In this document: piece after piece, positions 2,544 to 54,737 of the stretch
Layout: every line of letters starts with the position of its first letter
Numbering within the stretch: the first letter of the stretch is position 1
From: Legionella birminghamensis
Lineage (GTDB): Bacteria > Pseudomonadota > Gammaproteobacteria > Legionellales > Legionellaceae
DNA: 64,000 nucleotides
Direction of reading: 5' to 3'
Assembly: GCF_900452515.1 (NCBI RefSeq)
Contig: NZ_UGNW01000001.1
Location: forward strand, 1,054,001 to 1,118,000
The notes under the pieces: model-generated
Database searches by the model: none
Seen by the model: the letters and a program-made list of their open reading frames with translations, nothing else
What the model was told of the DNA's origin: nothing
Made by a program: the position numbers and the translations under genes

Positions 2544-3107
2544 ATGGAATACCGCAAACCTGAAGAATCTGATTTTGCGAAAATGGTTGATTTACAGAAC
2601 GAAAATTTGGCTGTTAATCTGGCGAGCGACCTGGGCGATGGATTTTTGTCAGCCGGGTTTACTGCCGAACAGTTAAAGGCAATGGACGCAGATCTGGGCA
2701 TTACAGTCGGCGTTGAGGGCGATGAGCTCTGTGCCTATCAATGCACAAGCACCCTGGGCTACAATAAAAATGTCCCTTTGGTTCAGGCAATGATTGATCA
2801 ATTCAAGCACCTGAATTACCAGGGGAAAGCGCTTTCACACTATCACAGCTGCGTTTACGGGCCTGTCTGTATTGCCAGAACACACCGGGGAAAAAACATT
2901 ATGTCCGGTCTATTTCAACATATGAGCCGATATATTATTGAGAAACACCCTGAAATTGAACTATTGACGGTGTTGGTTTCCAAAGCAAATCCCCGCTCGG
3001 TTAATGCACATATCAAATTGGGAATGGAAGTCATAGGTGATTTCCTGTTTAATGGTACCGAGTTTGTTATCCTGGTTTTTCCGCTGTATTCAATACGGAA
3101 TGGTTAA
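2544..3107 (+). CDS. GNAT-family N-acetyltransferase
   Basis: This 187-residue protein has the GNAT fold: MEYRKPEESDFAKMVDLQNENL at the N terminus, an acetyl-CoA binding segment ARTHRGKNIMSGLFQHMSRY (about residues 112-131, fitting R/QxxGxG/A-type motif A), and a C-terminal VSKANPRSVNAHIKLGMEVIG, the classic motif-B pattern of N-acetyltransferases. The acceptor substrate cannot be read from sequence. It is monocistronic, followed by a strong GC-rich palindrome at 3147-3181. The start ATG at 2544 is the first in frame and fits the family. Confidence 0.85.
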   Translation: MEYRKPEESDFAKMVDLQNENLAVNLASDLGDGFLSAGFTAEQLKAMDADLGITVGVEGDELCAYQCTSTLGYNKNVPLVQAMIDQFKHLNYQGKALSHYHSCVYGPVCIARTHRGKNIMSGLFQHMSRYIIEKHPEIELLTVLVSKANPRSVNAHIKLGMEVIGDFLFNGTEFVILVFPLYSIRNG

Positions 3108-3146
3108 GAATCAGGTAATCTCTTGAATGCCGGCGGTGCTTCTTAT

Positions 3147-3206
3147 TCGAATCCCCGCGGCATTTGACCGCGGGGATTCGACTGCATTTTGTGTAGATAC
3201 CTATAG
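3147..3206. repeat. GAATCCCCGCGG palindrome with a CTACACAA-type end
   Basis: TCGAATCCCCGCGG (3147-3160) and CCGCGGGGATTCGA (3168-3181) form a perfect 14-bp stem with a 7-base loop. Just downstream, TTGTGTAGATACCTAT (3189-3204) matches the outer end of the MITE-like element at 54503-54728. It is probably a decayed or minimal copy of that element family. The hairpin could also end transcription of the upstream acetyltransferase, although no T-run follows. Confidence 0.75.
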
Positions 3207-3294
3207 GATACCCTAAAATATATTTCCCCATCCAAAATTTTATTCCCGGATTTGAGCTATATTAAAATTAACAAAGGACTGAGTTGAAAATGCC

Positions 3295-3981
3295 ATGCCT
3301 TCTATAATGTCAATATCAAAGCTTATAAAAAGCTCTGACGAAATGAGTCCTGTACCTGATTCCTACCCCAAAAAATTGGCAATGGCAGCTATTGATCATC
3401 TGAAAACCCTGCCCTCTCCTGGAAGTAAAAAGGAAAAAGAGAGTATAAAAATAGTAGAAGATATTCTAAACGGGGACGATTCCACTCTGGAAAAGATAAA
3501 AAAGGCTTACAATGCCATGAAAAAGAATGGTGCCTGTAACAGCAAACATCAGGCGCTTGCAGCGTTTCAGTTTATTCTAAGCACATTAATCGAAAAACGA
3601 ATTGCAAACCCGGATAATGTCATGCCTTTGGAATTGCTTTCCCTTCGCGATCATTTTATTGTGCAACTTGACAATAGTGTTATTTGCGATCCAAAACTGC
3701 AAGCCTGCTACCTGGTAAGTGATTTAAAAACTCTGATCTCAAAAGATCATACCGAGGGCTGGGGATTGTTTTCCGACCCGAGTACCTATTTTAAAATAGA
3801 TAACCATTGGTTTTGCTCTTCCTGTTTTAATACCAATAATAAAGCCAGCCGTGATGAAGCCTCCATGAGAAGTACTTACAAATTATTTGCCCCTGTCTAC
3901 CATGATTCCCCCTTGGCCGCCAGGAGAGAGGCAGCACCAGAGGCAGAAGAAACGCCTGATATATCTCCGGCCAAGCGTTAA
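3295..3981 (+). CDS. Hypothetical protein, possible Dot/Icm effector
   Basis: I do not recognise this 228-residue protein. It is hydrophilic, has no signal peptide or membrane segment, and looks mostly helical in the first 110 residues (Lys/Glu-rich). A Cys-containing middle part follows (CDPKLQACYLVSDLKTLISKD, then WFCSSCF near residue 173). The C terminus EAAPEAEETPDISPAKR is Glu-rich, small and polar, which resembles the E-block signal known from many Dot/Icm substrates. An ATG at 3290 is out of frame; the chosen ATG at 3295 has GAG eleven bases upstream, and an in-frame ATG four codons later is an alternative. Effector status is inference from the C terminus and orphan nature only. Confidence 0.6.
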   Translation: MPSIMSISKLIKSSDEMSPVPDSYPKKLAMAAIDHLKTLPSPGSKKEKESIKIVEDILNGDDSTLEKIKKAYNAMKKNGACNSKHQALAAFQFILSTLIEKRIANPDNVMPLELLSLRDHFIVQLDNSVICDPKLQACYLVSDLKTLISKDHTEGWGLFSDPSTYFKIDNHWFCSSCFNTNNKASRDEASMRSTYKLFAPVYHDSPLAARREAAPEAEETPDISPAKR

Positions 3982-4028
3982 CAAATCCACTAAATTTCAG
4001 TATATTGTAAGTTTGTCTATTAGGGAAA

Positions 4029-5042
4029 ATGGTTTTGGCACTTCGTGATCGATTGTCGGCATTTCAATATTGGCCTCATGTCATCACGGTTAGCATTATT
4101 GTGCTGGCTGTTGCCGGCTATCGTTATTTTGCCTATTATGATACGCGCTCCAACGATGCCTATGTCTCTGCCAATATTATCAATATGGCGTCCCTGGTTT
4201 CCGGTCCAATCAGCGAGATTTATGTTGTTGAAAATCAGCGCGTAAAGAAAGGCGATAAGTTGATTACCATCGATCCCAGGCCTTATTTATATGCTTTGAA
4301 TAAAGCCAAAGCGCAATACAAGATGGCAAAAATTACCTATGCCAATGAAAAACTGGGGATACAGGTCGCAGAAGAGGAATTGCGCCAGAGCAAATCAATG
4401 CTTGCCTTAAGCCAGGATCATTTACGCCGTTATCAAAAATTACAGCAGCACGGCGATCTGGCAGAAATTCAGTTGATTAATACCGAAGCCAAAATAAGCG
4501 AGCAACAGGCTATAGTGCTGGCCGCTATGCAGAAACTCAGAATTGCACAGCAGAATTTTGATGATAACGCGATTAAGGCTGCTTTAGCGGAGGTCAACAA
4601 AGCCCAGTATTTATATGATCATACAACAGTGGTAGCGCCCACAGACGGTTATATTACCAATTTTAATCTGCGTAAAGGGCAATATATTCGAACAGGGGAG
4701 GGGTTATTCGCTTTGGTAGATACCAGCTACTGGTGGATTGTAACGCGTTATCGTGAAACATCCATCCGTTTAATCAAACCTGGAGATAAGGCAAAAATTT
4801 ATCTTGATATGTATCCCGGTAAAACTTTCCACGGGCATGTAGAGAGCATTGGCTGGGGAATTAACCGGGTACAGGCCGGGCAGGTTGCGCCTTCTACGCT
4901 GGCGTACCTTGAGGCGACCGAAGACTGGATAAAAATAGCGCAGCGTTTTCCTGTGCGTATCGCTATCGATGACATCAGTGAGGAGTACCCCCTGAGAATT
5001 GGTGCGAGTGCGACGACGATTACCTATCCGGTGAAAAAGTGA
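4029..5042 (+). CDS. HlyD/EmrA-type membrane fusion protein (efflux periplasmic adaptor)
   Basis: The 337-residue adaptor has one N-terminal membrane anchor (about residues 16-33, HVITVSIIVLAVAGYRYF), then the lipoyl/barrel-sandwich half-motif (TRSNDAYVSANIINMASLVSGPI), a long coiled-coil hairpin (about 90-190), and the second lipoyl half VVAPTDGYITNFNLRKGQYI followed by a beta-barrel. It overlaps the downstream FUSC gene by four bases (5039-5042), so the two are translationally coupled. The pairing is that of AaeA/AaeB-type aromatic carboxylic acid or fusaric acid efflux pumps. Substrate is unknown. No outer-membrane factor gene is adjacent, so a TolC-like partner elsewhere is inferred. Confidence 0.88.
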   Translation: MVLALRDRLSAFQYWPHVITVSIIVLAVAGYRYFAYYDTRSNDAYVSANIINMASLVSGPISEIYVVENQRVKKGDKLITIDPRPYLYALNKAKAQYKMAKITYANEKLGIQVAEEELRQSKSMLALSQDHLRRYQKLQQHGDLAEIQLINTEAKISEQQAIVLAAMQKLRIAQQNFDDNAIKAALAEVNKAQYLYDHTTVVAPTDGYITNFNLRKGQYIRTGEGLFALVDTSYWWIVTRYRETSIRLIKPGDKAKIYLDMYPGKTFHGHVESIGWGINRVQAGQVAPSTLAYLEATEDWIKIAQRFPVRIAIDDISEEYPLRIGASATTITYPVKK

Positions 5043-10455: not shown

Positions 10456-10561
10456 GTTGCTTTTCCTTGGAGTTGAATGACTTAATTAAAGTATACTCAT
10501 TTGTTGGAATTCTGTTTGCACCTCTCGCGAATATGCGCAGTTACCCAGAGATATTCACATC

Positions 10562-10848
10562 GAATCCCCGCGTACAATTGACCGTCCGAATCCCCGCGGC
10601 TGCGACCGCGGGGCCCATGCCTGGTTCCGAACATGATCTTCAGGGGAATCCTATGTTGCTGAAAATAGCAATTAATAGCAGTTAGGAACAAATCTTTCAA
10701 ACATTAACCTTAAATTAGCAAAACCAATATTCTCAATAGGTTTCATGTGGGCCCCGCGGTCGCAGCCGCGGGGATTCGGATGGCGCTGCCGCGGGGATTC
10801 GGATGGCGTTGCCGCGGGGATTCGGATGGCGTTGCCGCGGGGATTTCG
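10562..10848. repeat. Composite GAATCCCCGCGG repeat element with 23-bp tandem array
   Basis: This fills most of the 10456-10848 gap. Two left copies of GAATCCCCGCG (10562 and 10590) lead into a stem ending GACCGCGGGGCCCATG (to about 10620). Then comes an AT-rich core of about 125 bases, and a mirrored right end GGGCCCCGCGGTC (about 10750-10762). From 10765 a 23-bp unit is repeated: 10765-10787, 10788-10810, 10811-10833 and a partial copy 10834-10848 that touches the stop of the glutathione transferase gene. The core resembles that of the element at 54503-54728 (for example AACAAATCTTTCAAACATTAA here and AACAAGTCTTTTTAACATTAA there, each about 21 bases). Confidence 0.8.
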
Positions 10849-16509: not shown

Positions 16510-17418
16510 ATGAAAATTGCGATCTTGGCGACCAATCCCCATTTATATTCTCACAAACGGTTAAAGGAAGCCGGTGAAGCTGCAGGACATGAAGTCAATA
16601 TTATCAATCCGTTGTATTGCTATATGAATGTGGCGGCTTCCAGCCCCAAAGTTCATTATCGCGGCGGAGAGCCTCTGCCTAAGTATGATGCAGTGATTCC
16701 GCGTATAGGTGCTTCAATTACCTATTACGGCACTGCTGTTTTACGTCATATGGAAACGATGGGCATGTATACCATCAACGAATCCATAGCTATTTCACGT
16801 TCACGCGATAAGTTTCGCTCCTTGCAAATACTGGCAAGAAAGGGGATTCCCATGCCGCTGACCAGTTTTGCACAATCTCCGGATGATACCGAGGACTTGA
16901 TTCGTATGGTCGGTGGAGCCCCTTTGGTAATTAAATTACTGGAAGGAACCCAGGGAAAAGGGGTTATTCTGGCAGATAGCCATCAATCCGCTGTCAGCAT
17001 TATTAATGCATTCAAGGAAATGTCAGCCAATATTCTGGTGCAGGAGTTTATTCAGGAATCCAAGGGAACCGATATCCGCTGTTTTGTAATTGGTGATAAA
17101 GTCGTTGCCGCAGTTAAAAGACAGGCAAAAGAAGGCGAGTTCCGTGCCAATGTACATCAGGGTGGTAAAGCGCAAAAGGTGGCCTTATCGCCTCAGGAGC
17201 GTGCAATAGCCGTTGGCGCTGCGAAAGCAATGGGTCTCAAGGTAGCAGGCGTAGATTTAATCCGCTCCAACCACGGCCCTTTAGTTCTTGAAATCAACTC
17301 TTCCCCGGGGTTGGAGGGTGTTGAAAAAGCCACTCACATCAACATTGCCGGAAAAATTATCCAATACATCGAAAAAAATGCCAAACCAAAAGGTTTGAAT
17401 CAACGATTTCAGGGCTAA
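16510..17418 (+). CDS. rimK: RimK-type ATP-grasp ligase
   Basis: RimK adds glutamate residues to the C terminus of ribosomal protein S6. From ATG 16510 the product is 302 residues: [22 protein letters not shown], then [23 protein letters not shown], the ATP-grasp core ([63 protein letters not shown]) and metal ligands in VDLIRS and [13 protein letters not shown]. All are typical of RimK. An upstream in-frame start at 16474 would add twelve residues that do not match the family. The gene stands alone and ends just before a large inverted repeat. Confidence 0.95.
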
Positions 17419-21703: not shown

Positions 21704-21991
21704 AAACAGATACATAGGTAAATCTACACCAATGCATTAGAAATATCGAATCCCCGCGACACCGAGGCATAGGTATTTACACAAGTTCTACAAGCCGTCT
21801 TTGCGATCATAGCGAAACAATCCAGAACGAAGTTAAAATGAAGCACCGAAACTGGATTGTTTCACTTCGTTCGCAAAGACAGATGGCCTCTCCGTCAGAC
21901 TCACTTATATGATATGGCTTGTAGTCACTTGTGTAGATAGCTAGGGGACAGACTGTGTTTCAGAGAAGTGCAGATACCTATGAAACAGACT
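21704..21991. mobile_element. Nested MITE-like element with imperfect 9-bp target duplication
   Basis: The outer ends are CATAGGTAAATCTACAC at 21713 and GTGCAGATACCTATG ending at 21982. They are flanked by AAACAGATA (21704-21712) and AAACAGACT (21983-21991), which match at 7 of 9 positions. Inside is a second inverted pair: CATAGGTATTTACACAAGT (21768-21786) plus CTACAAGCC (21788-21796) against GGCTTGTAG (21916-21924) plus ACTTGTGTAGATAGCTAGG (21927-21945). A 29-base-arm palindrome (21797-21825 with 21852-21880) forms the centre. A partial GAATCCCCGCG lies at 21748-21758. There is no ORF. This accounts for most of the 21407-22004 gap. Confidence 0.7.
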
Positions 21992-24464: not shown

Positions 24465-24803
24465 GAATTCCCGCGGCTTGAGCTTGAGAGATCCTCGCAA
24501 GATTTAATCATCTTAACAGTACCACGTACCGCGCTTTATGCGCGGTAACCATAAATAGGATGGTGTATTGTAATACTTTTTATTCATCAGCAAACATTGC
24601 ATGGATACCGCGCATAAAGCGCGGTACGTAGCGTTTTTCAGTTATCCCTCAAGGGCTTGACCGCGGGGCCATGCAGCCCTCAAAACCCGATTTGCTTTGT
24701 GCAAAAAAAGGGTCCATTATGGGTCCCGCGGTCAAGCCGCGGGAATTCGGAATGGTCAAGCCGGGGAATTCGGCACGGTCAGCCGCGAGAATTCGGAATG
24801 GTT
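24465..24803. repeat. Complex repeat region between pyrB and comM
   Basis: This 350-base gap has no gene. It holds three layers. The first is a GAATTCCCGCGGC end (about 24467) and GACCGCGGGGCCATG (about 24660-24674), with mirrored GGGTCCCGCGGTC (about 24722-24734) and then three degenerate tandem GGGAATTCGG copies up to 24800. The second is an inverted pair at 24524-24547 and 24606-24629, whose 24-base arms are exact reverse complements, each itself nearly palindromic around CCGCGCTTTATGCGCGG. The third is a GAGAGATCCTCGCAAGATTT string (24486-24505) related to that after alaS. Confidence 0.75.
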
Positions 24804-40910: not shown

Positions 40911-43900
40911 ATGGCAGGCAGAAAAGAAAACCTTAAAGCACTTTTTACAAATACCCGTTCTCGGGTCATCATTGTTTTTACAACCATCCTGCTGGTTATT
41001 GCCGTAGTGATTGGAGTCATCAAATTTATGGGTGCGGGAACAGACGGTCCCGGCGCGTCTGCAGATGTTCCCGGCGCACCAGCCATCCAATCCATTCCTG
41101 GCGCACTAAATCCTACTGCCCAATATGCCAAGCTACAGGAAGCTCAGAATGTTACTCAGGCACAGAACGCCTTAAAAACCGGAGGCAGTGCTATTCCAAC
41201 ATTGATCCGTTCCCAACAAATCGGAAGCGGTGTTGACGGCGTTGGCATGGCCGGTGATAACGGCCAGGGCGGCGTCGGGTTTTCGACATTAGCCATGGAG
41301 GATGAAGCAGGGGCGCAACGCAGCCTGTGGCTGGATGAATTAAGAAAGGGGAATTGCAATAAGTCCGTAGTGCAGAAAGTCGTTAGCGAAGGAGCAAACA
41401 TTTCCCTCCTCAAACAAGCATGCTCCTGCGTCCAGTTAAAAGCAGATGGTTATCAATTAGCAGATTTACAGCAGAGCTGTTCCTGTCAGGAATTAAAAGC
41501 AGCAGGATTTAATGCCAGGCAGTTAAAAGACAACGGTTATTCAGCTGGGCAATTGCGCATTTGCGGTTTCGATGCCTGCGAATTGAGAAATGCTGGATTT
41601 ACTGCGCAACAAATGAAAGATGGCGGTTTTTCCGATGGCGAGTTAAAAGGAGCTGGATTTTCGGATGCCGAGATCAACAAGGCAAGCGGCTTGCCTGATG
41701 GTGTCACTGAAGCAGACATACGAAAGGCTGGCTGCGATGTGAATGCCTTGCAACGTTTGCGTTCAGCAGGGGTCTCTGCTGCAGCAATACGCCGCACAAA
41801 TGGCTGTGGTGCGAATCAATTAAAAACTGCAGGTTTTACTGCCCAGGATTTACGTAACGCCGGATTTTCTGCCGCTGATCTTAAAAATGCAGGCTTTACC
41901 CCGGAGCAATTAAGACAGGCTGGTTATAGCGCAAGAGATTTATTGAACGCGGGTTATACACCGGATGAATTGCTTAAGACAGGATATACGCCAGCCGAAA
42001 TTGAAGCGGCTGAATCAGAATTGCCCCCTGGTATAACACCAACTGATGTAAAGAATGCAGGTTGTGATATTAATGGGGTGACCAAAGAAAGGTTGGCCGG
42101 CGTGAGTGCAAAATTGATTCGTCAGTATGCCAATTGCAGTGCCCAGGCATTAAAAGCCGCGGGATTCACAAATGGTGATTTGGCCTATGCTGGATTTACT
42201 CCCGACCAAATAAAGGCTGCCGGTCTATTATCTGATGACGCCATTCGAGCAGCGGGATGTGATCCAGACAAATTAAAATCGATTAATACTGGAGGTGTTT
42301 CTGCGCGTAAAATCAAAGATCTGAATGGCTGTACGGCAGCAGCTCTAAAAGCTGCAGGCTATGGAGCGCAGGCTTTGCTGGATGCTGGATATACACCCCA
42401 GGAATTGACCGCTGCCGGGTTTACTCCGGATGAAATACGTGCGGCGCAGCAAGCTTCTGATGCAGCAATTAAGGCTGCTGGTTGTGATCCTGACAAGCTG
42501 AAGGCTCTTTATGCAGCCGGTGTGTCTGCGAAACGGATCCATGATTTAAATGGCTGTTCCACTGCTGCTCTAAAATCAGCGGGCTACGATGCAAAATCTT
42601 TACTGGAAGCGGGCTTTACTCCCCAGGATCTGCTAGCTGCCGGATTTACCCCGGAACAAATTCGCCAGGGACAGTTAGCGACAGATGCGGCAATCAGGGC
42701 AGCAGGCTGTGATATTAATAAGCTGGGCGAATTGAAAGCTGCAGGCGTCACTGGAAAACGTATCCACGAATTGAGTGGTTGTAGTGCTGCAGTTCTGAAG
42801 GATGCAGGTTTTAGCGCTCGTTCGCTTTTAGACGCCGGGTTTACCCCTCAGGATCTTAAGAATGCCGGATTTACTGCCAGGCAATTACTCGATGCCGGAC
42901 TTACACCGCAACAACTATTGCAGGCTGGCTTTACTCCTGATCAACTAAGACAGGCAGGTGTCAGTGCGGCAGATATTATTGCAGCCGGTCGCGTTGCGAA
43001 TTGTAATGTTTCTTCTTTGCAGGCTGCTCATGCGGCAGGTGTATCGGCGACAGTGATCAAGCAAACTTTGGGTTGCAGCGCTGCTGGACTCAAGGCTGCT
43101 GGCTACAATGCTGCTGACCTTCGCGCTGCTGGGTTCACTGCTGCAGAACTAAAAAATGCGGGTTTTAGTGCTCCTGATCTGAAAGCAGCTGGCTTTAGTG
43201 CAAAAGAACTCCGTGATGCGGGTTTTCCAGCTGAAGAATTAAAAGCGGCAGGGTTTACTGCAGGTCAGCTCAAAGAAGCAGGATATTCAGCAGCGGAGCT
43301 AAAATCATCTGGATTCACCGCGAAACAATTAAAAGATGCAGGCTATAGCGCTAAACAATTGAAGGATGCTGGTTTTAGTGCAACAGAACTAAGAGCCGCC
43401 GGTTTTTCAGCCAAGGATCTGAAAGATGCCGGATTTAGCGCAGCGGCATTACGTACTGCCGGTTTTTCTGCAAAAGATCTTAAAGATGCAGGCTTTACAG
43501 CGGAAGAGTTAAGAAATGCCGGATTTTCTGCTTCTGCATTAAAGGATGCCGGGTTCTCGGCAGATGATTTGCGGAAAGCCGGGTTTAGTGATGCAGAGCT
43601 TCAGGCTGCAGGTATACAGCCGGGCTCAGCAGTTGCTGGTCTGGGCGAGAATCAGATTCCTGGAGCTACTTCCGGTGTTCCGGGTGTTCCTGGTTTGTCC
43701 GGGACCGGGCTTACAACAGCCTCTAGTCAGGCTGCTGCCAATAGCAGGCAGCTTCAGGAAATTCTCAACAGGCAAAATCAGCAGATGGCTGACCAACGCT
43801 ATCAGCAACGGATACAACAGCGTACGTCTGACATGATGGGTGCAGCGACATCCTCTCTCCAGAGTTGGTCTCGAGTATCGGTGCAGGCTTATACAGCCAG

Positions 43901-44585
43901 CAGTATTCCTGAAGAAGAGCCCAAAGCAGGTACAGGGGTGTTAGTCCCAGGCTCCCAGACCAATATAGCAGTAAGCAGCTCTCAAACAACGACAATTGTC
44001 CAGACAGCACCCAAAGCCGTAATTAAGACAGGGGATATCATTTTCGCAGTGCTGGATACTTCAGTGAACAGCGATGAACCGGGTCCGATTTTAGCAACCA
44101 TAGTGTCTGGAAAATTAAAAGGTTCGAAGTTGATTGGAAGTTTCACATTGCCCAGCAACTCGGACAAAATGGTGATTAGCTTTAATACACTGTCCATTCC
44201 CGGAACGCCACATACGATTTCAGTTAATGCCTTTGCTATTGATCCCAACACTGCACGCACTGCATTGGCTAGTCGCACCAACCATCATTATCTGCAACGT
44301 TATGGTTCCTTATTTGCCTCCTCCTTCCTGGAAGGGTTTGGTAATGCATTCCAATCGGCAAACACGACTGTAACTGTTGGCGGCACCGGAGGCGGCGACA
44401 ATATTACTGTGCAGAATGGTATTGGACGATCGGCATTGGAGAACGCTGTAATAGGTTTGGCAACCGTAGGTAAATCCTGGGGCCAGGTCGCTCAACAACA
44501 GTTCAACCGTCCGACCACAGTTGAAGTATTTTCAGGTACTGGAATGGGTATCCTCTTTACCCAAGATGTCACGTTAACAAGCTAA
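40911..44585 (+). CDS. icmE: Dot/Icm core channel protein IcmE/DotG
   Basis: IcmE (DotG) is the VirB10-like protein that spans inner membrane, periplasm and outer membrane to form the channel. The 1224-residue product is longer than the L. pneumophila form (about 1048). It has an N-terminal cytoplasmic part, one TM helix (about residues 16-38, SRVIIVFTTILLVIAVVIGVIKF), a Gly/Pro-rich linker, a repeat domain (about residues 165-905) of ten-residue units such as AGFTAAELKN, and a VirB10-like C-terminal domain (KTGDIIFAVLDTSVNSDEPGPILATIVSGKLKGSKLIG). The extra length lies in the repeats. It begins three bases after icmK. Confidence 0.96.
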   Translation: MAGRKENLKALFTNTRSRVIIVFTTILLVIAVVIGVIKFMGAGTDGPGASADVPGAPAIQSIPGALNPTAQYAKLQEAQNVTQAQNALKTGGSAIPTLIRSQQIGSGVDGVGMAGDNGQGGVGFSTLAMEDEAGAQRSLWLDELRKGNCNKSVVQKVVSEGANISLLKQACSCVQLKADGYQLADLQQSCSCQELKAAGFNARQLKDNGYSAGQLRICGFDACELRNAGFTAQQMKDGGFSDGELKGAGFSDAEINKASGLPDGVTEADIRKAGCDVNALQRLRSAGVSAAAIRRTNGCGANQLKTAGFTAQDLRNAGFSAADLKNAGFTPEQLRQAGYSARDLLNAGYTPDELLKTGYTPAEIEAAESELPPGITPTDVKNAGCDINGVTKERLAGVSAKLIRQYANCSAQALKAAGFTNGDLAYAGFTPDQIKAAGLLSDDAIRAAGCDPDKLKSINTGGVSARKIKDLNGCTAAALKAAGYGAQALLDAGYTPQELTAAGFTPDEIRAAQQASDAAIKAAGCDPDKLKALYAAGVSAKRIHDLNGCSTAALKSAGYDAKSLLEAGFTPQDLLAAGFTPEQIRQGQLATDAAIRAAGCDINKLGELKAAGVTGKRIHELSGCSAAVLKDAGFSARSLLDAGFTPQDLKNAGFTARQLLDAGLTPQQLLQAGFTPDQLRQAGVSAADIIAAGRVANCNVSSLQAAHAAGVSATVIKQTLGCSAAGLKAAGYNAADLRAAGFTAAELKNAGFSAPDLKAAGFSAKELRDAGFPAEELKAAGFTAGQLKEAGYSAAELKSSGFTAKQLKDAGYSAKQLKDAGFSATELRAAGFSAKDLKDAGFSAAALRTAGFSAKDLKDAGFTAEELRNAGFSASALKDAGFSADDLRKAGFSDAELQAAGIQPGSAVAGLGENQIPGATSGVPGVPGLSGTGLTTASSQAAANSRQLQEILNRQNQQMADQRYQQRIQQRTSDMMGAATSSLQSWSRVSVQAYTASSIPEEEPKAGTGVLVPGSQTNIAVSSSQTTTIVQTAPKAVIKTGDIIFAVLDTSVNSDEPGPILATIVSGKLKGSKLIGSFTLPSNSDKMVISFNTLSIPGTPHTISVNAFAIDPNTARTALASRTNHHYLQRYGSLFASSFLEGFGNAFQSANTTVTVGGTGGGDNITVQNGIGRSALENAVIGLATVGKSWGQVAQQQFNRPTTVEVFSGTGMGILFTQDVTLTS
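41400..43620 (+). repeat. Coding repeats of icmE, with 225-bp super-repeats
   Basis: The DNA encodes about seventy ten-residue units of the general form LKxAGFxAxx. Within it lie three longer units of 75 residues (225 bp), beginning at 42240, 42465 and 42690. Each starts AI(R/K)AAGCD and carries a GVSA(R/K)xI and a second Cys (LNGC or LSGC); the third decays after about 70 residues. From about 43060 to 43610 the array is simple ten-residue units without Cys, consistent with recent expansion by slippage or unequal exchange. Confidence 0.85.
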
Positions 44586-50336: not shown

Positions 50337-50378
50337 AGGCCCTATAGGTTTTTCCATCTGAATTCGGCGGCTGCGACC

Positions 50379-50615
50379 CATAGCTATTGACACAAATCCA
50401 GTCGAATCCCCGCGGCTTCGACCGCGGGGCCCATGGTGGCCTTAAACAAGAGCTTAGAAAAACTACAATCCTGCCAGAAGTAAAGATTGAATGAATTGCT
50501 TAGTAAATTGAGTCTCCGAATTAGATTCATTGGGGCCCCGCGGTCAAGCCGCGGGGATTCGGATTAGTCAAAGCCGCGGGGATTCGGCGTGGTCGTGCCG
50601 TGGGGATTCGGATGG
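50379..50615. repeat. Composite GAATCCCCGCGG repeat element between icmB and icmF
   Basis: The left end is CATAGCTATTGACACAAAT (50379-50397), then CGAATCCCCGCGG to GACCGCGGGGCCCATGG (about 50403-50435), a core of about 95 bases, the mirrored GGGGCCCCGCGGTC (about 50533-50546), and three tandem, increasingly degenerate GCCGCGGGGATTCGG copies to 50611. The right outer end (TTGTGTAGATAGCTATG) is missing, so the element seems truncated on the icmF side. No gene is present in this 303-base gap. Confidence 0.75.
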
Positions 50616-50639
50616 TCGGTTGGAAAAGTGCAAAGGCGT

Positions 50640-53570
50640 TTATCCCTGGGCTATGTCTTTCTTAAGGCTAAATCCTGTCAGGATACCAGGGCTAAATGGA
50701 TTGATCTGATTTTGTGTTTTCAATAAATAGCGTCCAGAGTTACCATTTACTTCAAACAGAATTTGCAGGCTGCTGCTGTCATTGCTATCAACCAGCACAT
50801 TGACTTTCTGGAGCATTTTAAAGAAAGCCCAGGTGCCTGTTTCTTCCAATTCGTAGTGGTTGCCTTCAATAGAGCTTAAGCTAAGTTTTGCCCCGCGTTG
50901 CGGCCAGGTAAATTCTGTATCAGATTCACTGTTTTGATTATCAGACAGTGAAGTTTCACCAATGGTGAGCTGTAAACTGGAGACAACGGGATCCAGATTT
51001 ATTTTCTGCAGGGAAAATTCAATGCGGCTGGTATCTGAATCGTCAGGGAAGAACATATTGCTGATAACATTGGCTCTGATTAATTCATTAATTAAATCAT
51101 TGGAAATTGGCATTAGATAGCCATTTAATTCTTTAGGCTGCCACTGTGCATGCGATGTATCCAGGAAGGGTTTTAAATAATGAGTAACAAAGCTGTTCAA
51201 GGTTCCATGGGGTGAGAAGAAATGATCGAAATCCTCAAGGCCTATTTCTTCTTTCTCTGTTGGATCCAGAGGATAGCGCTTGGCTATGGCATTTTTGTAA
51301 ACACTATAGACGCGTTTATTCCATTGTTTGTTTAAGAATTCGCGGCTTTCATTGATAAAAATGAACCAGGTATCGTCAGCAATTTGTTTTGCCCAGCTGG
51401 CAATGGGCTCAGGAAGTTGTCGTGAGCGATTATAAAGGGAACTTAATGGATCAGTCAGGGTATCGCCGCGGAATCGCGCCTGAGTGAGGTCGAATACGGT
51501 TTGCCCTTGATCATTGACTAAAGCCAGGGTGGTCAGAAACTTTTCCAGCTCATTGACATTGACTGTCAATTCCTGCGCAGCTGAGCTGGTCATTAAATTC
51601 AGGGCCGTAAATTGATTGGCAATTTTCTGATTAAAGAGACTGGCGTTTTCAGCGGCTTCCGGGCTGGTTTCTTGCTGAATTAATTGAACCAGACGTCTGA
51701 TTGAATCAGATTGCTGCAGCGCTTGTGTTAATTGTTTGGCTTGCTGATAACCCTGATAGTGTTGCGGTCTGGTGCGCCTGGTAAAGTTGAGCCACCAATT
51801 ACTGTAATCAAAGCAATAGGCTTGTTCAAGCTGAGTTTGCAGGTTATCGAGATCTTGACGTGCAAGCACCCAGTTTTCTTTTTGTAATGTGACTGTGATT
51901 TGTGGAAGTAAGCTTAGGACTTCAATAAAGCCTGCTTTAGTGAAATAATCAGGCAATTCCTTGGAAGCCAGGTCAAAACCTTCAACGCTGATTGAGGTCT
52001 TTCCCTGGGGAAATTGCGCTTTTGCTAAAGAGTAATATAAATAGGTAGCCGGCAGGGCATTAAGATAATTCCGTGCATCGCTGACAATCTGTTGATTAAT
52101 TGGAAGCGCCTGACGCGGCTGCTTAAGCGCATTGTGAAGCAGAAGCAGCTGCTTATCATTCTGAAATGCTGCATTAGTGTTTTTCCAGTAATCACTAAAC
52201 CAGGCAGTTACCGCTTGTTCAGAGAAATGCTCCGGCTCTCCCAGCATTAAATAGATTTTTAAAGCCTGATAACGAGCCAGCTGAGTCTGGGATGGATTGG
52301 AAATTACCTCTTCCAGAGATGATAATACATCGGGTAGAAAGTTGTCGTGCAATTTACTAATCGTACTATTATGCAACTGCAGTTTCAGTTGTTCGATGAC
52401 AGGATGAGAAACCCAGCCTACAGGAATCAGGTTAAGCTTGGTTTCTGCCTGCGATAAATGATACAGGGCAGAGGCTAAATCCTTGTTCTGGCTGCTCAGT
52501 GTTTCATAGGCCATGAGCTCTTTGCTTGCATCGTCAAGCAAGTCTGCGGTCTGGTTATATTGATACCACAAAACGCTCAGAAATACTGCAACCACTGCTG
52601 TGGTTCCCAGGGCAGCAATTTTGTGACCTTTGGTTAAAGAGGCATCCAGTTTTTTGGTCTGTTCCTGGAAGGCTTTAATTGCGCCTTCAATGAAATAAGC
52701 GCGGTAATTGCTTGATTGATGATATTTATCGGGAATAGTTAATGCGTATTCATGTTGAATTCTCTGATTTAAGCGGTCAACTGAAACGCCGCCCTGTTCT
52801 GCACTGGTAAAATAAACCGCCTGCAGGAGAAAGTCTTTTGCGGCCAGCTGCTGAATTAAGGTTTGGACTGGAATTCTCAAACTGGCCAACTGCAAAGGAA
52901 ACTCTCTGATCAATGTCCGTTTAACACTGGAACGGGCTGGATGCAGTTTATTGATGGTTTCCTGCCCAAGCACTTCAATCATACGATCGAACTGAAGACG
53001 ATAGTGATCAAAGAGTTTTTTAGGCTGAAGATTATAGTCCAGTGAAAAGCCCAAGGGTTTACTTAAGTCCTGGATATGCTCCGACTGGAAAAAATCGCAG
53101 AATCCGGCCAGTGTATCCAGCTTGGTAAAGATAACTGCTAATTCAGTCTTATAACCCAATGCTTTGCTGAAACGCTCAAGTAGATTGGCATGGGACTTAC
53201 ATTGGCTTGCAATCTGCACGGGCTCCGTCATTAAAAAATCACGGCTGTCGACGCATAAAATAATGCCGCTAACGCGAAGACCTCTATGGCAGCGGTTTAA
53301 CTGTTTTAAGTTATGATGGAGCAGATTGTCGGTTTCATGAAGCCAGGTTTCACCAAGCTCCAGAATAATGCCGCTGTTATTATAAAAGAAATTGGCGCCA
53401 TTTAACTCATCTACGGCATGATGGTTTAGATTTGCCTGCTTAAGCAAGGTTGTTTTGCCTTGATGGCTTTTTCCGATGACCAGCAAAAAGGAAAGGGGAT
53501 TGGATTGTGGTTTTAACAGGCTAACAATTTTTTTTAGAGCGTCACAGAGCGCTTGCAGTGATCTATCCAT
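50640..53570 (-). CDS. icmF: Dot/Icm inner-membrane protein IcmF
   Basis: IcmF with IcmH helps polar targeting and stability of the core complex; it is homologous to TssM of type VI secretion. The 976 residues (973 in L. pneumophila) have an N-terminal GTPase-like domain with a P-loop GKSHQGKT (residues 33-40), a hydrophobic segment (about 318-342, KIAALGTTAVVAVFLSVLWYQYNQ) and a long periplasmic helical domain ending in a beta-rich C terminus (RIEFSLQKINLDPVVSSLQLTIGETSL and FFKMLQKVNVLVDSNDSSSLQILFEVNG). Its ATG shares a base with the icmH stop, so they form an operon. Confidence 0.95.
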   Translation of the reverse strand: MDRSLQALCDALKKIVSLLKPQSNPLSFLLVIGKSHQGKTTLLKQANLNHHAVDELNGANFFYNNSGIILELGETWLHETDNLLHHNLKQLNRCHRGLRVSGIILCVDSRDFLMTEPVQIASQCKSHANLLERFSKALGYKTELAVIFTKLDTLAGFCDFFQSEHIQDLSKPLGFSLDYNLQPKKLFDHYRLQFDRMIEVLGQETINKLHPARSSVKRTLIREFPLQLASLRIPVQTLIQQLAAKDFLLQAVYFTSAEQGGVSVDRLNQRIQHEYALTIPDKYHQSSNYRAYFIEGAIKAFQEQTKKLDASLTKGHKIAALGTTAVVAVFLSVLWYQYNQTADLLDDASKELMAYETLSSQNKDLASALYHLSQAETKLNLIPVGWVSHPVIEQLKLQLHNSTISKLHDNFLPDVLSSLEEVISNPSQTQLARYQALKIYLMLGEPEHFSEQAVTAWFSDYWKNTNAAFQNDKQLLLLHNALKQPRQALPINQQIVSDARNYLNALPATYLYYSLAKAQFPQGKTSISVEGFDLASKELPDYFTKAGFIEVLSLLPQITVTLQKENWVLARQDLDNLQTQLEQAYCFDYSNWWLNFTRRTRPQHYQGYQQAKQLTQALQQSDSIRRLVQLIQQETSPEAAENASLFNQKIANQFTALNLMTSSAAQELTVNVNELEKFLTTLALVNDQGQTVFDLTQARFRGDTLTDPLSSLYNRSRQLPEPIASWAKQIADDTWFIFINESREFLNKQWNKRVYSVYKNAIAKRYPLDPTEKEEIGLEDFDHFFSPHGTLNSFVTHYLKPFLDTSHAQWQPKELNGYLMPISNDLINELIRANVISNMFFPDDSDTSRIEFSLQKINLDPVVSSLQLTIGETSLSDNQNSESDTEFTWPQRGAKLSLSSIEGNHYELEETGTWAFFKMLQKVNVLVDSNDSSSLQILFEVNGNSGRYLLKTQNQINPFSPGILTGFSLKKDIAQG

Positions 53571-54355
53571 TAGTTTTCCAGTTTCGCGGTAGCAGTATGA
53601 CCAAATTGAACCATTCTGGCTTTATTTTCGACTAGCAAATAACTCAGTCCGTACCCTGCCGCCAAAATGCATAAGGAAACAAAAGCAACTGTTATAAAAG
53701 GTTTATGGTTGCTTACCCTGCTTTCAACCTTTTTAGGCTCTTTAAATAGGCGATAGGATTTATTGACACGGTATTGTTTAATGAGTTGAAACAATTCCTC
53801 TATCAGATTGTCAAGCACTTGCCGTCCATCGCTGCGGTAGTGCTGTTTCCCTTCAAAGCCGGTAATCAGGCAATAATAAGCCAACTCAATTAAGTCCAGA
53901 TATTGATTCGGTCTATCCTTGATATGCTTTACGATATCAAAGAAGCGTTCTTCAGGTCCAACGCCGTTATGCGACAGGGGGGTAAACGCCTGAAACTCCG
54001 CCGGAACGCTATAAAGTCTGAGGTAGCTTTTTCCCAGTATTTCATCAATGGTTGCACATAATAAATAATGAGCAATCGCGTTTAACTCATCAGAATAGGC
54101 TTTTCCATGCAAGCGGCTATGAAAAGCAAGCAGTTCATGTTCAACATTTTCCCGTATATCAGCAATCGGAGGAAGCGATGGGCTGATGCATAAACGCTCC
54201 AATAAAGATAATACAGGCCCGGCTGCAGCTACTAATGGATTAGTAGTGAAAGGCGCAATAAATAATTTGGAGCGATAATAGCCATGAGCAGATAGAGGTT
54301 TGCCCATAATAGATAAATTGCTGACAAGTGAGGCCGAAATTGACTCAGCTGTCAT
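53570..54355 (-). CDS. icmH: Dot/Icm inner-membrane protein IcmH/DotU
   Basis: IcmH (DotU) is an inner-membrane protein of the DotU/TssL family, which stabilises the system with IcmF. The 261 residues have an N-terminal cytoplasmic helical domain with LLAFHSRLHGKAYSDELNAIAHYLLCATIDEILGKS and GPEERFFDIVKHIKDRPNQYLDLIELAYYCLITGFEGKQHYRSDGRQVLDNLIEELF, and a single C-terminal TM helix (about residues 223-243, FITVAFVSLCILAAGYGLSYLL), as expected for the family. It is the first gene of icmH-icmF. Confidence 0.96.
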   Translation of the reverse strand: MTAESISASLVSNLSIMGKPLSAHGYYRSKLFIAPFTTNPLVAAAGPVLSLLERLCISPSLPPIADIRENVEHELLAFHSRLHGKAYSDELNAIAHYLLCATIDEILGKSYLRLYSVPAEFQAFTPLSHNGVGPEERFFDIVKHIKDRPNQYLDLIELAYYCLITGFEGKQHYRSDGRQVLDNLIEELFQLIKQYRVNKSYRLFKEPKKVESRVSNHKPFITVAFVSLCILAAGYGLSYLLVENKARMVQFGHTATAKLEN

Positions 54356-54493
54356 ATTTTGACTCCAACTTACTTCTCAAATTAATGAGGTATGAATATT
54401 AATCAAGCAGTGTATTGGGTGTTGTAAAATACACCTGAGCTATCTGCTTAATACAGAAAGTGTATCGATAATACGTCATCTCGATTACCTTGT

Positions 54494-54737
54494 CGATAAG
54501 ACCATAGCTAACTACACAAATATTTTCCCCGTCCGAATCCCCGCGGCACCCATGCCTGTTGAAGTAGTATGGTCCTCAGACATGTTTCAATGCTGCCAAA
54601 AAATAGGGTTTAACAGGCAGTCATAAACAAGTCTTTTTAACATTAAATTGGCTTCGTGTGGACCCCGCGGTCGCAGCCGCGGGGATTCGATAGCGTTTAA
54701 TTCCCATCCACTTGTGTAGATAGCTATGCGATAAGAC
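54494..54737. mobile_element. MITE-like element, 226 bp, with perfect 9-bp target duplication
   Basis: The element spans 54503-54728 with terminal inverted repeats CATAGCTAACTACACAAAT (54503-54521) and ACTTGTGTAGATAGCTATG (54710-54728), matching at 17 of 19 positions. It is flanked by the direct repeat CGATAAGAC at 54494-54502 and 54729-54737, a perfect 9-bp target duplication. Inside are GAATCCCCGCGGC (54535-54547), an AT-rich core and CCCCGCGGTCGCAGCCGCGG (about 54664-54683). There is no ORF, so it depends on a transposase elsewhere. This lies in the 54356-54745 gap between icmH and the next gene. Confidence 0.85.

What the first reader, a model, noticed from the sequence alone, without database searches (positions are those of the whole stretch)
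54494..54737. A complete 226-bp MITE-like element with a perfect 9-bp target duplication beside icmH
Inverted ends of 19 bp (17 of 19 matching) are flanked on both sides by CGATAAGAC directly at the termini. Together these make a transposition event the simplest reading. The interior carries the GAATCCCCGCGG palindromes that recur over the window, so this copy defines the full structure of the family (outer CATAGCTA...ACACAA end, inner GC-rich stem, AT-rich core). A 9-bp duplication points to a transposase family with that step; no transposase is in the window.
Basis: seen in the sequence. Interest (0 to 1): 0.75.

Follow-up and report, generated by a model that had tools for sequence, protein, structure and literature searches.

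The report
Orphan mini-transposon beside a secretion gene
A short piece of DNA with no gene of its own has jumped in beside a secretion-system gene of a Legionella-like bacterium; it has many relatives in this genome, while an insertion sequence with the same ends was found in another Legionella species, so it is a well-documented but ordinary kind of mobile element with a liking for hairpin-shaped landing sites.

Summary
A 226-bp element (54503-54728) has ends matching at 17 of 19 positions, between perfect CGATAAGAC repeats. A sister species has the empty site with one CGATAAGAC. It is a MITE, but not the type copy: it lacks 12 nt of the left hairpin present in the 236-bp copy L178.

The genome holds at least 43 long BLAST matches, 185 end motifs against 15 in the control, and 339 CCCCGCGG-N4-8-CCGCGGGG hairpins against 0-19 in 142 family genomes.

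The end motif occurs in 3 of 143 family genomes: this one, G129 (a MITE with another interior) and Legionella impletisoli, where it ends a complete 1347-bp IS4-family insertion sequence. Transposases 37-40% identical to it have near-identical ends; three show 9-10-bp duplications. The window's genome has only a distant Tn5-type relative of that transposase. So the MITE looks orphaned, moved in trans by an IS not found here.

Targets are often loops of GC-rich palindromes, though not at the focal site. Known kind; no description of this family turned up in the searches made.

The parts
54494..54502 (.). left target duplication CGATAAGAC
   Evidence: single copy in G005
54503..54521 (+). left terminal inverted repeat, 19 bp
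54535..54546 (+). first arm (GAATCCCCGCGG) of the left hairpin; the second arm is deleted in this copy
   Evidence: alignment
54503..54728 (+). whole MITE copy, 226 bp
54663..54684 (.). right hairpin CCCCGCGG-TCGCAG-CCGCGGGG
54710..54728 (-). right terminal inverted repeat, 19 bp
54729..54737 (.). right target duplication CGATAAGAC
54468..54496 (-). promoter-like site in front of icmH that overlaps the left duplication (consensus match only; 1 found, 0.8 expected by chance)
   Evidence: a 32-bp block at 54467-54498 also matches loci L200-L203 of same-genus genomes
53570..54355 (-). neighbouring DotU/IcmH gene
   Evidence: PF09850
50379..50609 (+). relative with one left end, two hairpins, extra half-hairpin units and a diverged core
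   Evidence: core alignment z 4.9
10560..10846 (+). relative with two hairpins, a 23-bp unit array (10761-10845) and a diverged core; no terminal repeat found
   Evidence: core alignment z 7.6
21768..21945 (.). 178-bp element with the same ends but another interior; no matching flanking repeat
3149..3205 (-). fragment: one hairpin and one terminal repeat

Best explanation
The element is a non-autonomous DNA transposon (MITE) of an IS4-family group whose members end in CATAGSTATCTACACA. A transposase supplied in trans recognises the two inverted ends, cuts the element out and pastes it into a new site with a 9- or 10-bp stagger, which leaves the direct repeats. Preferred targets are loops of G+C-rich palindromes (GG-N5/6-CC between CCCCGCGG-like arms); the site beside icmH is an exception, a plain intergenic site. 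The partner transposase was not found in this genome; an intact 1347-bp IS with the same ends sits in Legionella impletisoli, so the partner was probably lost here after the burst, or acted from a plasmid. Shown by sequence: ends, duplications, empty site, the same ends on an IS, target bias, no close transposase found. Inferred: that a transposase of this group moved the MITE, cut-and-paste chemistry (from what is known of Tn5), and loss of the partner.
For: Perfect 9-bp duplication and exact empty site. Direct repeats in excess over reshuffled flanks. The end motif is found in 3 of 143 family genomes; in one of them it bounds a complete IS with a 422-aa DDE transposase. BLAST aligns that IS to the MITE's two ends. 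Relatives of the transposase at 37-40% identity have near-identical ends on at least one side in 7 of 7 inspected and on both sides in 4 of 7, with duplications CCTTATAGG, CATTGGGAGG and CCCAAGATG in three. G129 carries a second MITE with the same ends and another interior; 6 of 13 pairs have exact 9-10-bp repeats. Y(2)R(3)E(6)K residues invariant in six transposases. Hairpin arm beside 58 of 133 ends against 0.46% of random positions.
Against: No transposase able to move it was shown in this genome, so activity in trans is inferred. 28 of 43 paired copies have no repeat within two mismatches, and some flanks are inverted instead of direct (L139; L054, L059), which simple insertion does not give. 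The interior has no clear match to the IS beyond the ends. The focal target is not a clear palindrome (4 of 10 arm bases complementary).
Confidence: 0.87

Rival explanations
1. The MITE is moved by the one Tn5-type IS resident in this genome (470-aa ORF, L032:3154-4566).
For: It is the only PF14706 transposase of the genome and a distant relative of the L. impletisoli transposase (26%, E 7e-7). Its ends, CATATCATTACCCATAAGT, agree with the MITE's right end at 12 of 19 positions by my reading.
Against: The ends differ at 7 of 19 positions, and the repeat read beside it is 8 bp (GCTGCAAC), not 9-10. The same IS in G005 (three copies) goes with no MITE of this type there: G005 has no end-motif hit.
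Confidence: 0.08
2. The hairpin pairs are REP/REPIN elements spread by a RAYT (Y1 tyrosine) transposase, and the ends and duplications are incidental.
For: Two G+C-rich hairpins in inverted order with a spacer look like a REPIN; some relatives in the window have hairpins and no ends found (10560-10846). 339 hairpins in the genome.
Against: No Y1_Tnp match in this genome, while 5 of 14 control genomes ring. Terminal repeats, 9-10-bp duplications and an exact empty site point to a DDE transposase.
Confidence: 0.03
3. The copy beside icmH has been kept as a regulatory element of icmH (folded structure or altered promoter).
For: It folds far better than shuffles as single-stranded DNA (z -5.65) and lies just upstream of a promoter-like site in front of icmH.
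Against: No terminator-like site found and the promoter-like site is no more than chance gives (1 found, 0.8 expected); no Rfam match above gathering score; sister species G005 and G006 do without the element.
Confidence: 0.08

Closest known systems
IS4 family, subgroups IS50 (Tn5) and IS4Sa (PMC2266710, passages read)
   Same: Partner IS: one ORF, invariant YREK residues, 1347 bp, 9-10-bp duplications in the group; its left end fits the end signatures CW------Y---CA-A--W- (IS50) and CA------T (IS4Sa) printed in that paper. The profile of six transposases finds only Tn5 transposase among solved structures (E 8e-7).
   Different: No match to Pfam's Tn5 DNA-binding and dimerisation domains, NCBIfam's IS4 model only below its cut-off (98 against 160 bits); IS50 duplications are given as 8-9 bp, here 9-10. 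The subgroup stays open.
ISRm22 of Sinorhizobium (IS4 family), which inserts into REP palindromes (PMC1525189, abstract and passages read)
   Same: IS4-family element aiming at the axis of G+C-rich palindromes; that paper also reports copies with unequal flanking repeats and offers recombination as the cause.
   Different: ISRm22 is an IS, with 6-bp repeats in that paper; here non-autonomous elements with 9-10-bp repeats. Sequences were not compared.
QMITE2 of Coxiella burnetii (PMC5896051 and PMC10969869, passages read)
   Same: MITE of about 190 bp with 7-9-bp repeats; truncated copies look like REP elements.
   Different: Sequences were not compared. I saw no parent IS named in the passages read; here an IS with the same ends is identified.

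Membership tests
MITE | short, terminal inverted repeats, no transposase gene | tested here: met
   226 bp, ends 17 of 19 equal; no ORF of 100 aa or more within it
MITE | target duplication on insertion | tested here: met
   perfect 9 bp here, single copy in the empty site; 15 of 43 paired copies within two mismatches
MITE | many copies in the genome | tested here: met
   at least 43 long matches; 185 end motifs
MITE | ends shared with an autonomous IS | tested here: met
   L. impletisoli IS, in another species
MITE | mobilised in trans by that IS | not testable with these tools
   needs an experiment
IS4 family (partner IS) | DDE transposase with YREK motif, single ORF | tested here: met
   PF01609; Y305, R308, E312, K319 invariant in six sequences; one ORF
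IS50 subgroup (partner IS) | end signature CW------Y---CA-A--W- and duplications of 8-9 bp | tested here: inconclusive
   end fits but IS4Sa's signature fits too; duplications 9 or 10 bp in relatives
IS50 subgroup (partner IS) | Tn5-type DNA-binding and dimerisation domains (my own criterion) | tested here: not met
   no PF14706 or PF02281 match at E up to 0.001
REP/REPIN | RAYT (Y1_Tnp) in the genome | tested here: not met
   no match at E up to 0.001; 5 of 14 control genomes ring

The most novel reading that the evidence does not exclude
The MITE carries in its own body the kind of palindrome that its transposase prefers as a landing site. Each insertion would lay down new landing sites (more with the 23-bp half-hairpin units), a positive feedback that could explain 339 hairpins here against at most 19 in any of 142 relatives. 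Nothing excludes this, but of 133 ends examined only 3 have another recognisable core within 300 bp outside, two of these in tandem dimers and one in the hairpin of another copy.
Probability: 0.2. Interest if true: 0.6.

Novelty: new member of a known kind. Interest (0 to 1): 0.4.

Why it matters
It links an orphan MITE burst to a definite group of insertion sequences by ends that stay nearly the same while the transposases diverge to 37-40% identity. It adds a case of an IS4-type system that favours hairpin repeats, and it warns that many hairpin-rich repeats in this genome are parts or landing sites of transposable elements and need not be conserved regulatory elements. A sister species with the empty site makes the effect on the neighbouring gene testable in principle.

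Tried and rejected
I first took the resident Tn5-type transposase as the partner; its ends and repeat length differ, so it is now a rival. PF14706 in 11 same-genus genomes (own included) matched in 4, with 7 places; the ends read there are of three kinds, none the MITE's. Nested insertion into other copies as the main mode was tested and is rare (3 of 133). Rfam gave one match, far below its gathering score. The MITE has no blastn match in the plasmid collection. One solved-structure search with the single transposase found nothing; the alignment profile did.

Literature: searches for Legionella with MITE, REP or insertion-sequence terms, for IS4 or IS50 with MITE and palindrome terms, for L. 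impletisoli with insertion-sequence terms, and for the end sequence as text gave no title that names this family. I saw listings only (15 of 81 papers, 8 of 14), except for passages of PMC2266710, PMC1525189, PMC10969869 and PMC5896051. ISfinder was not available.

Empty-site test at 14 own sites against G005: 11 of 14 had both flanks paired; in 8 of 11 the G005 interval is shorter by 100 bp or more; in 3 (50360, L132, L134) it is not clearly empty, and at 50360 G005 has another palindromic repeat. Only the focal site gives an exact junction. A third core comparison (24665-24730) gave no support (z 1.1).

Limits: one search scored 40 of 271 candidates; searches list only part of the places or genomes. 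My own-genome sample is the window plus 95 stretches chosen from listed ends and matches, not a random sample. One search kept one pair per right end (46 rows to 43); 9 of the 46 rows have an end with 4 mismatches. One search left out ends nearer than 320 bp to the start of a stretch. In one search the two Acinetobacter lines were set one base off and are not used; searches give the right places. Recalled, from no call: the Tn5 outside-end sequence, and Tn5's cut-and-paste chemistry.

Unexplained: inverted instead of direct flanks in some copies (L139; L054, L059); recombination between copies is my guess.

Full report
What is there. It lies between the DotU/IcmH gene (53570-54355, PF09850) and a 160-aa ORF without a Pfam match. 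It is a mild deletion form: aligned with six other copies, it and L175 lack the second arm of the left hairpin, 12 nt that L178 (236 bp, perfect duplication GGATAAACC) has.

Proof of insertion. The DotU/IcmH gene is present in 11 of 11 same-genus genomes, own included. The closest two, G005 and G006 (92% identical protein), have no element at this place. G005 reads CTTGTCGATAAGACAAAAAAG, with one CGATAAGAC; G006 has CGATAATAC there. Alignments of the two flanks overlap in G005 by exactly 9 bp. Among 14 own sites tested in the same way, 11 could be paired and 8 of these are shorter in G005 by 100 bp or more. A full-length copy is absent from 10 of 10 other same-genus genomes; one of them has a 30-bp match.

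The family in this genome. BLAST gives 83 matches, 43 of them at least 138 query bases long, with only 40 of 271 candidates scored. The end motif has 185 hits against 15 for the reversed control. In the window plus 95 stretches I found 43 distinct inward pairs of 87-342 bp. Exact 9-10-bp direct repeats: 4 of 43; up to one mismatch 11 of 43; up to two 15 of 43. Reshuffled right flanks give means of 0.22, 0.96 and 1.81. Length varies partly through tandem 23-bp half-hairpin units: 5.0 copies in L164, 3.7 at window 10761-10845. The relatives at 10560-10846 and 50379-50609 have diverged cores (alignment z 7.6 and 4.9 against block shuffles, control stretch -0.9; part of the score lies in the shared edges of the compared stretches); a third candidate, 24665-24730, gave 1.1.

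The partner. Of 143 family genomes, 3 hold CATAGSTATCTACACAARTG at up to one mismatch: the own genome (95 hits), G129 (147) and G106 (10). In G106, 9 of the 10 lie within about 320 bp of a contig end, as expected for a repeat that broke the assembly. One copy there is complete: 1347 bp with one 422-aa ORF, a DDE transposase. BLAST aligns the MITEs to this IS at their ends and finds nothing significant inside; the first 28 bp of a G129 MITE match it at 93%. In the 143 genomes a complete copy of this transposase is seen only in L. impletisoli; a degenerate 45% relative is in G113 and a 49-aa remnant at 67% in G060. The own genome has only the distant Tn5-type IS (26%), and G129 has no match at E up to 0.001. 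G129's MITE has another interior; of 13 pairs read, 6 have exact 9-10-bp repeats, 4 of these GGTCAAGCC or GGCTTGACC.

Kinship of the partner. Relatives turned up in Acinetobacter, Shewanella, Fukatsuia and, over 52 residues, a planctomycete MAG, and in 43 plasmid records, all below 60% identity. In 7 of 7 relatives inspected an end like CATAGGTATCTACACA was found on at least one side, in 4 of 7 on both, one or both with up to 4 mismatches in two of them. Repeats read: CCTTATAGG, CATTGGGAGG, CCCAAGATG. In a sample of 369 gammaproteobacterial genomes the end motif is present in 6, this one included. The profile of six transposases hits only Tn5 transposase among solved structures. The L. impletisoli protein has no match to Pfam's Tn5-specific domains and scores below the cut-off of NCBIfam's IS4 models. 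I therefore call it IS4 family, near IS50 or IS4Sa by its ends (PMC2266710, passages), and leave the subgroup open.

Targets. The 112 distinct outer flanks of own ends give aTCCCCGCGG-N4-GACC; G129's 25 are alike; L. impletisoli's 11 give TGC-N2-TGCTTTAAGC. A CCCCGCGG arm within 22 bp outside the end is present at up to one mismatch for 58 of 133 ends, against 0.46% of random window positions. Of 18 pairs with recognisable repeats, 4 have at least 7 of 10 complementary arm bases beside the repeat, against 0.58% of random sites; means 4.6 and 2.55. The focal site is not of this type (4 of 10). Hairpins CCCCGCGG-N4-8-CCGCGGGG number 339 here and 0-19 in the 142 others. Known parallels are ISRm22 in REP sequences (PMC1525189, abstract and passages) and QMITE2 of Coxiella (PMC5896051 and PMC10969869, passages).

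Effect on the neighbour. The insertion point lies at a promoter-like site on the icmH strand, and the left repeat leaves that site whole. The site is no better than chance by itself (1 found, 0.8 expected), but a 32-bp block at 54467-54498 also matches loci L200-L203 of four same-genus genomes. What the element does to icmH is unknown.

Verdict. A transposed MITE with a clear empty site, apparently orphaned in its genome, and an IS with matching ends in another Legionella species. A new family of a known kind.

Noticed in passing
window 24524-24629; L216 (G005) about 16970-17080: Another palindromic repeat (ACGTACCGCGCTTTATGCGCGGTA and its inverse) lies inside a hairpin element of the window; a similar one stands in G005 at the place of the own 50360-50620 element.
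   Followed up: partly
L032 (own genome) about 3066-4573; L035, L037, L039 (G005): The resident Tn5-type IS and its three G005 copies sit in another hairpin-like repeat (GGACAAGC..., ACGTAGGCG side), so it too seems to favour palindromic repeats.
   Followed up: partly
window 40911-44585: A 1224-aa ORF holds many copies of a 30-bp unit (spacings mostly multiples of 30), so about a 10-residue protein repeat.
   Followed up: no
window 9582, 17421, 37967, 56494: Four copies of a 37-nt repeat with a TGGGCT-N-TAAAGCCCA palindrome.
   Followed up: no
NCBIfam NF011312 against L044:262-1530: A model named flagellar regulator FlhF matches this transposase with its second half only (108 bits, cut-off 951), which suggests a transposase sequence inside that model.
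   Followed up: no
L139, L054, L059: Some copies have inverted instead of direct flanks, such as GGCGAAGACC and GGTCTTCGCC.
   Followed up: partly
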